From NCBI RefSeq assembly GCF_030268205.1, contig NZ_BSQF01000001.1, positions 850,649-914,648 on the forward strand: a DNA stretch of 64,000 bases. The letters are read 5' to 3'. This document shows, piece by piece, positions 52,916-56,999 of the stretch. The notes under the pieces are model-generated. The model was not told the DNA's origin and did not search any database. It was given only the letters and a program-made list of their open reading frames with translations. This DNA is from Allomuricauda sp. NBRC 101325. Its GTDB lineage: Bacteria; Bacteroidota; Bacteroidia; Flavobacteriales; Flavobacteriaceae. The first letter of the stretch is position 1. Every line of letters starts with the position of its first letter. The position numbers and the translations under genes were made by a program.

Positions 52916-52949
52916 AAAAACAAAAAGGTCACCAAGTTGGTGACCTTTT
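52916..52949 (-). terminator. Terminator, copy A of a duplicated sequence
   Basis: AAAAGGTCACCAA and TTGGTGACCTTTT are exact complements around one base (52923-52949). On the minus strand a T-rich run follows. It ends the island that begins at 55.8 kb. The same 28-base text recurs at 56041-56068. Confidence 0.88.
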
Positions 52950-52996: not shown

Positions 52997-53557
52997 TCAT
53001 GAAAACATATACTCGATTTCACCACAAAGCTGCCACTTACCATCGACTTTCTTAGCCAAAATTAAAAATCCATTCCCTCCAATAACCCTGAATATGACAG
53101 CTTTGGTGTTGTCCTTGTTTAAATAGGGTTTAGACAAATGAACCCTAAGTGGTCTTGGCGGATTCATTAATGCTACCAAATCGGGACGGTCGGAGGCATA
53201 AATTAAATTTGGGTTTTCTATTTGTGTCTTATCCCATCTAGTCTTTACGGTTTTATACTCAATATTTCTCGCGATAAAACCAATATCTCCACTTTTTAAA
53301 ACCCATTCGATGTCTTTGCTTGCAAGAGGAACAATTTTTCCTGTTTCCAAATATTGCATATACCAATATATATATGCTTTAAAACCAGAATTTAAACCAA
53401 ATGTATAGTTCTCATCATAAAAAATGAAGTTCTCAGCATTGATGTCATTCAATACTAAATTCACAATATCATACCCTTCTTCCAATATTTCTTGGTTGAC
53501 AACTTGAGCTTTAGAACTCAAAACTGATAGCGTAAAAATGAAAAGTAAAAGTCTCAT
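52997..53557 (-). CDS. Small secreted protein, paralogue of the 191-aa lipoprotein
   Basis: A 186-residue secreted protein; start taken at ATG 53557 for a clean signal peptide (MRLLLFIFTLSVLSSKAQ). It is clearly related to the 191-residue lipoprotein of 53811-54386. Compare YDIVNLVLND with YGIINTILND, TRWDKTQI with KTWDKSKI, and KKVDGKWQLCG with HKEDGRWMLSCG. No family is recognised. It lies 10 bp after the orphan C-terminal tail fragment, in the order in which the intact pair occurs. Confidence 0.7.
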   Translation of the reverse strand: MRLLLFIFTLSVLSSKAQVVNQEILEEGYDIVNLVLNDINAENFIFYDENYTFGLNSGFKAYIYWYMQYLETGKIVPLASKDIEWVLKSGDIGFIARNIEYKTVKTRWDKTQIENPNLIYASDRPDLVALMNPPRPLRVHLSKPYLNKDNTKAVIFRVIGGNGFLILAKKVDGKWQLCGEIEYMFS

Positions 53558-53567
53558 TTTTATAATT

Positions 53568-53810
53568 TTAATTACAAGGTTGCTGCCCTTGTGGCACCGC
53601 ATTACCAAAACCCAATTGGTTGTGCCGTTCCGCATTTAAAATGTTCAATATTTGCGAACGTGTGCTTGCGTTTGGCACATACTGAATAAATTTTGGATGA
53701 ATCAATCCATCTCCAATTTCGGTTAATCCTCCCCAAGCCAAGGCTTCGTACACAAAATCATCAATCACATAGCCTTTGCTTTCTCCATAGGCCTGTATGG
53801 CATTTGTTTT
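53568..53810 (-). pseudogene. Orphan C-terminal tail of an HExxH lipoprotein paralogue
   Basis: An open stretch of 80 codons starting directly after the stop of the 191-aa gene, in the same frame, with no signal peptide. A GTG at 53768 could start 66 residues. It aligns with the last ~85 residues of the 486-aa lipoprotein (54346-55806): ALAWGGLTE against KLAWNGLTD, SQILNILNAE against QNIIQLINSE, and a shared ending P-x-G-x-x-PC(N/D). The metallopeptidase-like part is missing. It looks like the remains of a second, partly deleted copy. Confidence 0.7.
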
Positions 53811-54386
53811 TTAATATACGCTAATGTAATACCCACAACTCAACATCCACCTTCCATCTTCCTTATGTAGAAAATGGAGTTTTTCACCTTCCCTGCTTAT
53901 GTTTAAAAGTATTACTGCATTAACCATACTCTTATCATAAATCGGGTTTGAGAAACTAAAAATTTGTTTGCCCATAAGTTCATTGGCCTCTTTCATAGAT
54001 ATGTTTTTACCTAGCTTTTCACGATTAATATAACTTACTTCATTATAAGTGATTTTTGATTTATCCCACGTTTTTAATCTAAAGGTGGTTTTGTTTAATT
54101 TTACTTTGCCTTCAATATAGCGCATGGCACATGGGTCAGAATTGTAACCCTCATCATTCAATACTTTTTGGCCGTTCATATGACTATTGAAGTCTTCTAT
54201 TGCCAGTCCCACTGTTTCTTCTATTATAACATAAGGTTTGTTGGGATTTTTATAATCATTAAGAATTGTGTTAATGATTCCATATGTTTCTTTTACCAAA
54301 GTTTCTTCTTTGGGCAATGCCTTGCAAGCAATAAATAAGGATAGACTAATCACAAGGAGTACCAAATGGATTCGCCGAGTTTTCAT
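53811..54386 (-). CDS. 191-aa lipoprotein partner gene
   Basis: A 191-residue lipoprotein (lipobox SLSLFIACKALPKEE). No family recognised. Its first 41 bp overlap the end of the 486-aa lipoprotein gene, so translation is probably coupled. A paralogue follows downstream after the truncated tail. The C-terminal HKEDGRWMLSCGYYISVY is shared with that paralogue. Overlapping, lineage-specific partner genes after a long secreted protein suggest a helper or immunity-like role, by inference. Confidence 0.7.
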   Translation of the reverse strand: MKTRRIHLVLLVISLSLFIACKALPKEETLVKETYGIINTILNDYKNPNKPYVIIEETVGLAIEDFNSHMNGQKVLNDEGYNSDPCAMRYIEGKVKLNKTTFRLKTWDKSKITYNEVSYINREKLGKNISMKEANELMGKQIFSFSNPIYDKSMVNAVILLNISREGEKLHFLHKEDGRWMLSCGYYISVY

Positions 54387-55806
54387 AAGGTAAAGATTCT
54401 GAATTTATTAATTGTATTATATTTTGTCTTTCCAGAGTTCCTTCTGGATACAGTAGCTCAAAAGTAGTTGTGTCAGTTAAACCATTCCAAGCAAGTTTGC
54501 CCAAATATTCTCTAAGTCCATTATAATTATTGGAATCGTTGGTGTCATATTCGGTAAAATTATTTGGCAAATAATTATTATTTATAGACCAACTATATAG
54601 CGAATCTGCAATATCCCCAACAAAATTCTGCATATACTGATGGTGGTCGCCTCCAAAAGAAGCTTGATGAATTGTAAAATCTTCAACCAGTTGAGCATAA
54701 GATCCATTATTGGATTGAAACGAACCGGCTTGATAAAAATAAAACAGTAAAGCATGGACACTCTCGTGTATGGCTGTACTTGCAATATCAATATCTGTTG
54801 AAACATCAAGCCGTTGGGTATTCATCGTAATAAAATAATGTAGTGGATTTCCGTTTTGGACATATGTATTTCCTCCTTCTAGAATATTGTTGAGATTATA
54901 AGCTTGGATGGTAATACTTGGTTTGACATCGCTATTAAATATATCCATTACCAAATCAGTAATAGGGGAGTTTGCTGCTAGGGCATCTTTTATTATCTCA
55001 GATTGGCATGGGTAGTCTTCCAAATTAAAAATAATTTCTTCCTCATGTTCATCATCAGGATTGGCAGGAGCCGAAGGCCCTGCATGGTGCCCATGATAAA
55101 CGTCTCCCTGTTCGTGTCCGTAAGTACTGTGGGTGCCACCCGTACTTATAAATGCCCATTCATGTTGGGTGCTGTTGTGCACCGAATAGGCATATTCATA
55201 CAAACCGCCTCCCCTGTACATGTACATATCCGTGTATCTTTCGACCGTGATCAACAACCAAACTCCGTTATCCTCTATCTCAGGTTCTTTGGAATGGAGG
55301 GTTGGGCCTTTATCATCAACTGTTGTCATTTCACTAACCAATTCCCCTTTTTCATAAGCAAGGGCTTTTGTGTTGCTTCCCTTAAGATCATAATGGTGGA
55401 TCGTGCCTGAGAACTCCCCTAAATCCAAATGGGTAACGTTCTTCACTGGGGCGGCATTGTTTGCAAGGATCTTGATGACCTCAAAGTCCCATGCATTGCC
55501 CTGGTTATGGCCTAGGACTTGGTATTTGTATGCAAACTGCTTTTCATCGTTCACCAATTTTCCCTTTATGGAGGTGTCGAATTGATAGATCAATGCATTG
55601 GAAAGCGAATCGGGCCTAATGGTATAATTGTCCCAATCTACTTTTAGATTTTCTTTGATAAATGGGTCGTCAAAGTGTTCAAGTGAAAATTTACTTTCTA
55701 AAAAATGGAAACTTGCCTCGACAGGTGCTTGTTGGTCATCTTGTTGACAGCCCCATATCATAAAGGCCAAGAAAGAACCAAAGAGTAGGTTTTGTAGTTT
55801 TTTCAT
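54346..55806 (-). CDS. 486-aa lipoprotein with HExxH zinc-peptidase-like motif
   Basis: A 486-residue lipoprotein (lipobox FLAFMIWGCQQDDQQ). The N-terminal ~200 residues are beta-rich with conserved-looking HLDLGEFSGTIHHYDL. From about 265 on there is a separate region. Residues 347-351 read HESVH in STAIHESVHALLFYFYQ, with GGDHHQYMQNF some 37 residues later as a possible third ligand, as in zinc metallopeptidases. It ends NPFGTPCD. A tail like this also exists downstream as a fragment. Whether it is an active peptidase, toxin or surface protein cannot be told. Confidence 0.7.
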   Translation of the reverse strand: MKKLQNLLFGSFLAFMIWGCQQDDQQAPVEASFHFLESKFSLEHFDDPFIKENLKVDWDNYTIRPDSLSNALIYQFDTSIKGKLVNDEKQFAYKYQVLGHNQGNAWDFEVIKILANNAAPVKNVTHLDLGEFSGTIHHYDLKGSNTKALAYEKGELVSEMTTVDDKGPTLHSKEPEIEDNGVWLLITVERYTDMYMYRGGGLYEYAYSVHNSTQHEWAFISTGGTHSTYGHEQGDVYHGHHAGPSAPANPDDEHEEEIIFNLEDYPCQSEIIKDALAANSPITDLVMDIFNSDVKPSITIQAYNLNNILEGGNTYVQNGNPLHYFITMNTQRLDVSTDIDIASTAIHESVHALLFYFYQAGSFQSNNGSYAQLVEDFTIHQASFGGDHHQYMQNFVGDIADSLYSWSINNNYLPNNFTEYDTNDSNNYNGLREYLGKLAWNGLTDTTTFELLYPEGTLERQNIIQLINSESLPYENSANPFGTPCD

Positions 55807-56035
55807 TACTTGTTCAATTTTAATTTATACTAAGATTTGGGCGGGAATCTTAAAAATTGCACCGCAACTTGTTGTAGATGACCACTATGGACAAATACTA
55901 TTTTGCTGCGTTGAACAAGTATGGGGGTTCTGTTGCGACTAAACTAACAACTTTATTTTAATCCGGATTGGACAAAATCCTTAAAAAAATTGGGGATTTT
56001 ACGCAATCGGGAGGTTCAGGTATATGAAACCGATG
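55807..56035. other. Gap upstream of the HExxH lipoprotein
   Basis: This 229-bp gap must hold the promoter of the minus-strand island. A TAGTATTTG word at about 55891-55899 (minus strand) is one base too long to be a clear TAnnTTTG box. A 24-codon plus-strand frame at 55887-55961 is too short to support. Confidence 0.4.
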
Positions 56036-56068
56036 TAAAACAAAAAGGTCACCAAGTTGGTGACCTTT
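56036..56068 (-). terminator. Terminator of the atp operon, copy B of a duplicated sequence
   Basis: AAAGGTCACCAA and TTGGTGACCTTT form a perfect stem (56044-56067) with a T-rich run on the minus strand. It lies 74 bp past atpG. The 28 bases from 56041 are identical to 52921-52948. Confidence 0.88.
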
Positions 56069-56141
56069 CTATATGGAATATGTTTTATTCTAGTTGTTCA
56101 ACGACTTCGCTGTTGAAAATTTAGCCTCTCTTTCGTTCGGC

Positions 56142-56999
56142 TTAATTGTTCAAAGCTTCTGCTCCACCAACAATTTCCAAGATTTCATTGGTAATCGCAG
56201 CCTGACGTGCTTTGTTGTAGGTAAGTGTTAACTCGTTCTTCAACTCCCCAGCGTTGTCAGTTGCTTTGTGCATCGCTGTCATACGGGCACCGTGCTCACT
56301 GGCAAAGGAATCACGGATAGCCTTGTACAATTGTGTTTTCAATGATTTTGGAATCAATTGCTCCACGATTTCAGCCTTTGAGGGCTCAAAAATGTAATCG
56401 GAAGCTCCATTGGTTTCCCCTTCCACAGAAATTGGCAAGAACTTCTCAGTCATTACAATTTGAGTGGCGGCATTCTTGAACTTGTTGTACACCAAGTCAA
56501 TTTTATCGTATTGACCTGAGGTAAACTGCTCCATCAAAAACTCAGCAATTTCAGCTACGTTGTCAAAAGTCAAATCATCAAAAACTCCACTGTGGTTGGC
56601 CACAATGGTGTTCTTTTTACGAAGGATATCGTTTCCTTTTTTTCCAATGGTCACAAAATCCACTTGCTTTCCAGCGTAGGTTTCAGCAACCAACAGATTA
56701 CTTTGCTTGATAATGTTGGAGTTGAACGCTCCACAAAGTCCCCTGTTTGATGTAATGGAAACAACCAAAACTTTGTTTACAGGTCTGCCGATGGCGTACT
56801 CACTACCTCCATCGCCTTCCAAGCTGGCACTTAGGCCTTGTAAAAGTTCTGTAAGCTTATCCGCATAAGGGCGCATAGCTGTAATCGCATCCTGAGCTTT
56901 TTTCAACTTGGCAGCCGATACCATTTTCATGGCACTGGTAATCTGCATTGTCGATCCAATGGATGAGATCCTGTTTCGTATTTCCTTTAGATTTGCCAT
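56142..56999 (-). CDS. atpG: ATP synthase gamma subunit
   Basis: A 285-residue gamma subunit, the rotating central stalk of F1. The N-terminal helix MANLKEIRNRISSIGSTMQI and C-terminal NKARQAAITNEILEIVGGA are the family ends; SITSNRGLCGAFNSN is conserved. Start chosen at ATG 56999, which gives the standard N terminus. It is the last gene of the atp unit in this window. A palindromic repeat separates it from atpA. Confidence 0.96.
   Translation of the reverse strand: MANLKEIRNRISSIGSTMQITSAMKMVSAAKLKKAQDAITAMRPYADKLTELLQGLSASLEGDGGSEYAIGRPVNKVLVVSITSNRGLCGAFNSNIIKQSNLLVAETYAGKQVDFVTIGKKGNDILRKKNTIVANHSGVFDDLTFDNVAEIAEFLMEQFTSGQYDKIDLVYNKFKNAATQIVMTEKFLPISVEGETNGASDYIFEPSKAEIVEQLIPKSLKTQLYKAIRDSFASEHGARMTAMHKATDNAGELKNELTLTYNKARQAAITNEILEIVGGAEALNN

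What the first reader, a model, noticed from the sequence alone, without database searches (positions are those of the whole stretch)
52997..55806. Duplicated lipoprotein-plus-partner module with one copy reduced to a displaced tail
An HExxH lipoprotein (486 aa) is followed by an overlapping 191-aa lipoprotein. Directly after its stop, in frame, comes an 80-codon stretch matching only the last ~85 residues of the 486-aa protein, and then a clear paralogue of the 191-aa partner. The order [long protein][partner][orphan tail][partner paralogue] is that of displaced toxin-tail/immunity arrays in polymorphic toxin loci. A toxin/immunity reading is a hypothesis; a secreted peptidase with a chaperone or inhibitor is another. 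Neither member matches a family I know.
Basis: partly seen in the sequence, partly recalled or inferred. Interest (0 to 1): 0.75.

Follow-up and report, generated by a model that had tools for sequence, protein, structure and literature searches.

The report
Marine bacterial toxin-and-antidote gene array
The genes look like a bacterial weapon anchored to the cell envelope together with its antidote, followed by the stump of an older weapon whose antidote gene was kept; relatives swap the weapon end and its antidote as one piece, although no toxicity has been tested.

Summary
The locus is [486-aa lipoprotein with an HExxH C-terminal domain, CT] [191-aa exported partner] [80-codon 5'-truncated remnant of another CT type of the same family] [paralogous partner], in a Flagellimonas/Allomuricauda-type genome, between atpG and a flippase gene; the closest relative held is empty there. 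In relatives the carrier part stays about 95% identical in DNA while CT and partner are replaced; elsewhere the window's CT plus partner (92% DNA) sits on an unrelated carrier. In one relative (G032) the window-type CT is cut to 21 residues behind a newer CT/partner pair. CT similarity tracks partner similarity (Mantel r 0.61; rank correlation only 0.14) better than carrier similarity does (0.23). Related CTs occur in 63 of 299 family genomes searched. Long proteins carry acidic residues behind the lipid cysteine, like a Bacteroidota surface-export signal (33 of 42 recognised); partner lipoproteins do not (0 of 53). Best reading: lipoprotein polymorphic toxins with a zincin-like, perhaps SprT-related, warhead and exported immunity proteins; the stump is what a CT replacement leaves. 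Toxicity, delivery and target are inferred.

The parts
54346..55806 (-). 486-aa lipoprotein toxin candidate: lipobox ...WGC followed by QQDDQ (surface-export-like), carrier part about residues 1-252, C-terminal HExxH domain about 253-486
54349..55041 (-). C-terminal (CT) cassette domain of the 486-aa protein, last 231 residues, HESVH, bracketed by two Cys that are invariant in 16 aligned CTs
53811..54386 (-). 191-aa lipoprotein P1, cognate immunity candidate; start overlaps the CT end by 41 nt
53568..53810 (-). displaced 80-codon tail of a T-type CT with its stop codon; lacks the HExxH side
52997..53557 (-). 186-aa exported partner paralogue P2, orphan immunity candidate; starts 10 nt after the tail's stop
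55807..56036 (-). leader upstream of the long gene, partly conserved in relatives at this and at other chromosomal places
52917..52948 (.). terminator-like palindromic 32-nt copy on the flippase side of the insert
56037..56068 (.). identical 32-nt copy on the atpG side of the insert; the empty relative G070 has one copy

Best explanation
A polymorphic toxin/immunity array. The N-terminal part (lipobox plus acidic surface-export-like signal, then a lineage-specific region) is the carrier that displays the protein on the outer membrane; the C-terminal 231 residues are an interchangeable warhead, a small zincin-like peptidase perhaps distantly related to SprT; the gene right behind encodes an exported immunity protein that protects the producer and its kin in the periplasm. 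New CT/immunity cassettes enter by recombination just inside the carrier gene and cut off the older CT, whose 3' stump stays because the retained immunity gene's start lies in it or just behind it. The kept immunity gene would protect against kin that still carry the older toxin. Shown by sequence: the anatomy, cassette exchange, CT-partner linkage, displaced tails in many genomes, horizontal spread, export-type N-termini. Inferred: toxicity, neutralisation, periplasmic site of action, surface display, delivery, and why stumps persist.
For: Exchange on a constant carrier: L028 (G031) and L037 (G002) are 95.9% identical in DNA up to the CT start and 93.8% again from within the last partner gene on, with no match by this search between; carrier similarity 0.92-0.96 with CT-end similarity 0.08-0.11 in four pairs. 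Same cassette on another carrier: window vs L028 92% over 1221 nt = CT plus nearly all of P1, carriers 0.04. CTs of different families on one carrier: L035 vs L068 carriers 91% identical over 279 aa, L035 vs L076 76% over 276, CTs not alignable above background, HExxH in one only. Two stages: G032 has [another CT][its partner][21-aa end of the window-type CT][P1][T-tail][P2]. Linkage: Mantel r 0.61 over 88 pairs, 0 of 2000 permutations as high; partial r 0.63 given the carrier vs 0.13 the other way (58 pairs). Downstream frame at 71 of 71 full CTs vs 68 of 121 other frames of 300 aa or more; exported-like in 66 of 71 vs 20 of 64 controls. 22 of 93 CT hits incomplete or without HExxH, 20 of 22 lacking the N-terminal side, 18 of 22 lying 0.6-2.7 kb downstream of a full CT. 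Spread: P1 dS 0.12-0.21 among window, G032 and G043, whose flippase dS is 1.56 or more, or saturated.
Against: No toxicity, protection or export was measured. The linkage rests on close pairs: the rank correlation of CT end and partner is only 0.14, and carrier and partner also correlate beyond chance (r 0.23, 0 of 2000 permutations). Similar CTs can have different partners: window vs L029 CT end 0.79, partner 0.14; L028 vs L030 0.60 and 0.18. HExxH invariance in the alignment is partly by construction, since I picked CTs by that motif, and one full-length relative lacks it (L102). The CT model is of low confidence (pLDDT 62) and no fold match is significant. 5 of 71 partners and 3 of 17 tail partners fail the crude export test; 5 of 22 tails have no downstream frame by my rule. 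No secretion or transfer apparatus was looked for. Statistics treat related sequences as separate.
Confidence: 0.87

Rival explanations
1. A secreted or surface metallopeptidase used for feeding or envelope maintenance, with a dedicated inhibitor or chaperone behind it; tail and paralogue are a decayed tandem duplicate.
For: HExxH domain weakly SprT-like; partner co-encoded and mostly exported; paralogous partners in tandem.
Against: A duplicate should match this protein best, but the tail belongs to another CT type; CT and partner are exchanged on the same carrier, also for CTs without HExxH; partners stand behind tails in several genomes; only 17 of 71 genus genomes, own included, match the 486-aa protein, some by the carrier part only.
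Confidence: 0.08
2. Antigenic or receptor-binding variation of a surface lipoprotein by recombination with silent 3' cassettes; the partner is a passenger or assembly factor.
For: Surface-export-like signal, variable C-termini, incomplete cassettes downstream.
Against: Partner co-varies with the CT and is kept behind stumps of 21-25 residues, too short to serve as cassettes.
Confidence: 0.04
3. Assembly or sequencing artefact, or plain pseudogene debris.
For: The tail has no start of its own at its 5' end.
Against: Same arrangement in other genomes (for example L031, L042, L115, L119); the tail frame is open with dN/dS 0.02-0.08 in comparisons with the tails of L031 and L042 and the intact CT of L037 (0.14 for the window tail against the intact CT of L042).
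Confidence: 0.01

Closest known systems
SitA/SitI of Myxococcus xanthus (PMC5562445; passages read, with part of the abstract)
   Same: Polymorphic toxins that are themselves lipoproteins, constant N-terminal and variable C-terminal part, immunity gene directly downstream.
   Different: SitA CTs in the passages read are nucleases, SitA1- and SitA3-CT act in the cytoplasm, and delivery is by outer-membrane exchange; here the CT is zincin-like, the partner is exported, and the acidic residues behind the cysteine suggest surface display. No frame of 60 aa or more on the same strand lies between atpG and the long gene, so no sitB-like neighbour upstream.
CDI CdiA-CT/CdiI and Rhs orphan modules (PMC3150448; passages read)
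   Same: Downstream toxin fragments without start signals, each with its immunity gene; abrupt divergence after a conserved junction; interchange of toxin/immunity modules.
   Different: Upstream gene is atpG, not cdiB; no VENN in the 486-aa protein, no repeat or secretion domain found by Pfam. CDI orphans usually keep the junction side; the window's orphan has lost it together with the active site.
Polymorphic toxins of Zhang et al. 2012 (PMC3482391; passages read)
   Same: General architecture; metallopeptidase toxins Tox-MPTase1-5; lipobox carriers APD1/APD2 in Amoebophilus; a lipoprotein immunity family, Imm65.
   Different: Only one weak match to a Tox-MPTase model (Tox-MPTase3, 1 of 16 CTs, E 0.11); those toxins are described as typically behind RHS repeats; a lipoprotein immunity protein was called exceptional there, here a lipobox was recognised in 53 of 88 partners.
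TANFOR polymorphic toxins of Bacteroidetes (PMC7073777; passages read)
   Same: Phylum, polymorphic C-termini, immunity gene behind.
   Different: No NCBIfam match for the 486-aa protein; the listing counts no 'lipoprotein' in that paper.
SprT/Spartan zinc peptidases (PF10263)
   Same: Weak similarity around HExxH: 12 of 16 CTs at E up to 1, best 1.1e-5; Spartan 6mdw is the best PDB sequence match of the profile, E 0.023.
   Different: The window CT scores 15.0 bits against a cut-off of 25.6; carried on an exported protein, two invariant Cys.

Membership tests
Polymorphic toxin system | constant carrier with exchangeable C-terminal domain | tested here: met
Polymorphic toxin system | gene directly downstream that changes with the CT | tested here: met
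   exceptions L029 and L030; rank correlation only 0.14
Polymorphic toxin system | displaced or orphan CT/immunity cassettes downstream | tested here: met
Polymorphic toxin system | CT is toxic and the partner neutralises it | not testable with these tools
   needs expression and competition assays
SitA/SitI | toxin is a lipoprotein with an immunity gene downstream | tested here: met
   lipobox by pattern and eye; downstream partner
SitA/SitI | delivery by TraA-dependent outer-membrane exchange | not tested
   no TraA search was made
SitA/SitI | homology of the N-terminal region to SitA | not tested
   no SitA sequence was fetched
CDI (CdiA/CdiI) | two-partner secretion carrier with CdiB upstream and VENN junction | tested here: not met
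   upstream gene is atpG, no Pfam domain above cut-off, no VENN
TANFOR toxins | N-terminal TANFOR domain | tested here: inconclusive
   no NCBIfam match; I did not check that the TANFOR model is in that library
Tox-MPTase1-5 | match to the Pfam models | tested here: not met
   only Tox-MPTase3 in 1 of 16 CTs, E 0.11
SprT-like PF10263 | score above the curated cut-off, SprT fold | tested here: inconclusive
   below cut-off for the window CT, weak in 12 of 16; Foldseek probability 0.38 to 6mdw at E 2.8
NTF2-like immunity proteins | NTF2-like fold of the partner | tested here: inconclusive
   model pLDDT 76; weak NTF2- and SnoaL-like rows, but the most probable rows are Sec12 (0.72 and 0.66); none significant
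Bacteroidota surface lipoproteins with export signal (LES) | C-X-K-(D/E)2, or polar plus acidic residues, behind the lipid cysteine | tested here: met
   motif only: window C-QQDDQ; 33 of 42 recognised long proteins vs 0 of 53 partners have 2 or more acidic residues; definition from PMC5080379
Bacteroidota surface lipoproteins with export signal (LES) | exposure at the cell surface | not testable with these tools
   needs labelling or protease shaving

The most novel reading that the evidence does not exclude
A Bacteroidota-wide, so far unnamed class of polymorphic toxins that are displayed on the producer's surface as export-signal lipoproteins and enter the neighbour's envelope on contact, with a SprT-like zinc peptidase acting in the periplasm and lipoprotein immunity facing the periplasm; the chain of stumps with kept immunity genes is a readable, time-ordered record of past toxins.
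Probability: 0.4. Interest if true: 0.8.

Novelty: new variant of a known kind. Interest (0 to 1): 0.62.

Why it matters
Flavobacteria are prominent on surfaces in the sea, and their contact weapons outside T6SS and T9SS are, to my knowledge, little described (recalled). The array is a compact toxin/immunity set with no match above cut-off in Pfam or NCBIfam, seen in about a fifth of the family genomes sampled (63 of 299). It makes two questions testable: how a surface lipoprotein would reach a neighbour's periplasm, and whether kept immunity genes protect against ancestral toxins. The window/G032 pair gives two natural stages of a cassette replacement.

Tried and rejected
Family libraries: nothing above cut-off for the 486-aa protein, either partner or the tail in Pfam and NCBIfam. 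Below cut-off: SprT-like (E 0.058) for the 486-aa protein; for P1 RNase_A_lipo (NCBIfam, E 0.0048 but 16.9 bits against a cut-off of 200), CRISPR_Cas9_WED (0.025) and DUF1508 (0.14), which I take as chance. PADLOC: none for the 486-aa protein and the two partners; the tail was not included. Pfam with eight aligned partners: only weak matches, best E 0.025. Two whole proteins with non-HExxH CTs and three further partners: none at E up to 0.1. PDB sequence search of the whole protein: none at E up to 1. Viral contigs: no relative confirmed. Foldseek with both models: nothing significant. The VIA-align library was not on the machine.

Idea dropped: that the displaced tail is still translated and selected. 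dN/dS of the window tail against the tails of L031 and L042 and the CT of L037 is 0.05-0.07 with dS about 1.0-1.3, which first suggested this. But P1, in front of the tail in both window and G032, has dS of only 0.21 between them, so the displacement is probably recent and the low ratio reflects the tail's past in an intact toxin. Not settled: the P1-tail junctions of the two genomes differ in position.

Idea dropped: strict one-to-one CT/partner pairing; L029 and L030 have CTs similar to the window's or L028's with different partners. The 45 differences among 231 positions between the CTs of window and L029 crowd in residues 48-76 and 135-174 (by eye), a candidate specificity patch, not tested further.

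Literature: seven searches aimed at this family listed no paper on it in the rows shown; the lists are capped (for example 20 of 168 and 12 of 275), and I saw titles and starts of abstracts only, apart from the papers named in Closest known systems. Two further searches were for the export signal and for CDI orphans. Most subscription papers and preprints are not held.

Full report

The stretch is a stump of another toxin type. In genome G002, at two loci (L037, L042), a full-length HExxH C-terminal domain (CT) ends in a sequence 78% and 69% identical to the window's stretch and is followed directly by a P2-type partner. So the stretch is the 3' end of a 'T-type' CT and P2 is the partner of that type. 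The distance between stretch and P2 (10 nt) is about that of the intact T-type toxins (11 and 12 nt). P1 starts inside the 3' end of its own CT. A kept partner gene therefore needs at least the end of the old CT if its own start region is to survive; the shortest displaced ends found with P1 are 21 and 24 residues (L031, L029). That this is why stumps persist is inference.

Cassette exchange. L028 (G031) and L037 (G002) are 95.9% identical in DNA up to the CT start and 93.8% from within the last partner gene on, but between them one has an L-type CT, P1 and a P2 remnant, the other a T-type CT, a P2-type partner, a stump and another P2-type partner. Window and L028 share 92% over 1221 nt, which is the CT plus nearly all of P1, and a further 233 nt at 90% in P2, while their carriers are unrelated by my score (0.04). 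Carriers of L035 (G026) and L068 (G012) are 91% identical over 279 aa, of L035 and L076 (G069) 76% over 276 aa, of L036 (G023) and L072 (G008) 64% over 275 aa, yet in each pair one CT has HExxH and the other belongs to a different family with no alignment above background (sequences). In G032 (L031), at the same chromosomal place as the window, [P1][T-tail][P2] is present in order, but in front of P1 only 21 residues of the window-type CT remain, preceded by another CT (41-47% identical to the window's) and another partner. I read window and G032 as two stages of one process.

Linkage statistics. A profile of 16 CTs (A1) was run over 66 sources (window and 65 fetched loci, most chosen because they had a hit; 63 of 66 gave hits): 93 hits, of which 71 reach the N-terminal end of the profile and have HExxH, and 22 do not. 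The members of A1 were picked by the HExxHA and W.G motifs, so their invariance is partly built in; the two bracketing Cys were not selected for. Of the 22, 20 lack the N-terminal side and 18 lie 0.6-2.7 kb downstream (end to end) of a full CT on the same strand; the other four are two in L040 near a contig edge, one behind a non-HExxH toxin (L076), and one full-length CT without HExxH (L102). A downstream frame by my rule exists for 71 of 71 full CTs and 17 of 22 others, against 68 of 121 other frames of at least 300 aa in the same loci (the controls were not filtered for real genes). Exported-like by a crude hydropathy rule: 66 of 71 and 14 of 17, against 20 of 64 controls. For 88 CT-or-tail/partner pairs similarity of CT end and partner correlates at r 0.61 (0 of 2000 permutations as high; 0.54 in 78 less redundant pairs), but the rank correlation is only 0.14 and 0.16, so the signal sits in the closer pairs; the nearest partner neighbour is among the top three CT neighbours in 53 of 88 (300 permutations: mean 3.2, maximum 9). 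For the 58 pairs with a long carrier, carrier and partner correlate at 0.23 (also 0 of 2000) and carrier and CT at 0.21; partial values are 0.63 (CT end given carrier) and 0.13 (carrier given CT end). Against strict pairing: window/L029 and L028/L030 have similar CTs but dissimilar partners. In 71 genus genomes all 8 P2 matches and 8 of 10 P1 matches lie in CT or tail loci; the two others are weak and were not followed.

Topology. Of 58 long proteins a simple pattern recognised a lipobox in 42 (two of these cysteines are evidently wrong, and several unrecognised proteins have a lipobox visible by eye); 33 of 42 have at least two acidic residues among the five after the cysteine. Of 88 partners 53 had a lipobox and 0 of 53 this feature (Fisher p 1.2e-17, ignoring relatedness). 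The Capnocytophaga surface signal is C-X-K-(D/E)2, and acidic variants from B. fragilis and F. johnsoniae worked there (PMC5080379, passages). I infer that the toxin is displayed outside while the immunity protein faces the periplasm, so that the CT should act in the envelope.

The warhead. Invariant in A1 are C12, H92, E93, H96, A97, W185, G187 and C230 of the CT (see the caveat above). Pfam SprT-like is a weak match for 12 of 16 CTs (best 1.1e-5; window 0.023, below cut-off); Spartan 6mdw is the best PDB sequence match (E 0.023) and has the highest Foldseek probability in the 50 rows shown (0.38, E 2.8, not significant) for a low-confidence model (pLDDT 62, pTM 0.68). P1's model is better (pLDDT 76), but its fold hits, several NTF2-like and the most probable Sec12, are not significant.

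Genome context. In 66 of 71 genomes atpG and the flippase gene lie on one contig (4 split, 1 without matches): 34 of 66 are empty (128-195 bp), 32 occupied (0.7-6.4 kb), among them by my reading of the frames 8 with such arrays (G000, G008, G010, G012, G026, G032, G043, G069); among the others I saw sulfatase-like and MFS-like frames (by eye, no search). Three of the split genomes (G002, G047, G068) have arrays on the contig that carries the flippase gene. The closest relative, G070 (flippase 96%, atpG 97%), is empty. The window's insert lies between two identical 32-nt palindromic copies 3.1 kb apart; G070 has one. A leader in front of the long gene is partly shared with loci at other places (L044, L091).

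Timing. P1 of the window differs from its homologues in G032, G043 and G031 by dS 0.21, 0.12 and 0.25, whereas the flippase genes of window, G032, G043 and G002 differ by dS of at least 1.56 or are saturated (G031 not included there): the cassette moved between species. The window's T-tail has dS about 1.0 and dN/dS 0.05-0.06 against the tails of G032 and G002, which I take as its record as part of a working toxin before recent displacement.

Distribution. With the 486-aa protein 17 of 71 genus genomes match, own included, some by the carrier part only; with the CT profile 63 of 299 genomes of the family, own included, in 52 of 203 genera, and 25 of 296 genomes across the phylum in five families. 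I read 40 stretches from 39 of the 62 other family genomes with hits.

Verdict. It is a new variant of polymorphic toxin systems: lipoprotein carriers are known (SitA, APD1/2) and displaced CT/immunity modules are known (CDI, Rhs), but this carrier, this warhead and exported, often lipoprotein, immunity proteins have no match above cut-off in Pfam or NCBIfam and appear in none of the rows listed by seven searches aimed at them. Toxicity, neutralisation and delivery remain to be shown.

Noticed in passing
window 56069-56144 and loci L068, L075, L076, L077: Between the atpG stop codon and the terminator-like palindrome, toxin-bearing genomes carry a roughly 50-bp near-repeat of the atpG stop region (L075 has two); it is absent from the four empty genomes aligned and from L078.
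   Followed up: partly
intergenic atpG-flippase, L047-L078: Hot spot: 32 of 66 genus genomes have 0.7-6.4 kb here, often sulfatase-like or MFS-like frames (by eye) unrelated to the toxins.
   Followed up: partly
L044:5952-13000: Array of several CT cassettes in G026, several with a repeated pre-CT sequence (GG.GTDGI.K...CPEE.TLLPINEE) and each with frames behind it; one CT is of the non-HExxH kind.
   Followed up: partly
C-termini of the long proteins in L068, L072, L076: Second CT family without HExxH on similar carriers; the L068 and L076 proteins, the two scanned, have no Pfam match.
   Followed up: partly
L028:6716-6970: In G031 the P2 homologue behind P1 is reduced to an 84-codon frame with the last 77 residues aligned, an immunity gene apparently in decay.
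   Followed up: no
G067:C8:195376-195867 and G003:C1:178757-179245: Weak P1-like matches inside frames of 550 and 522 aa, possibly the same domain in another protein.
   Followed up: no
window CT residues 48-76 and 135-174 compared with L029: Differences between two otherwise alike CTs with unlike partners crowd in two stretches, a possible specificity patch.
   Followed up: no
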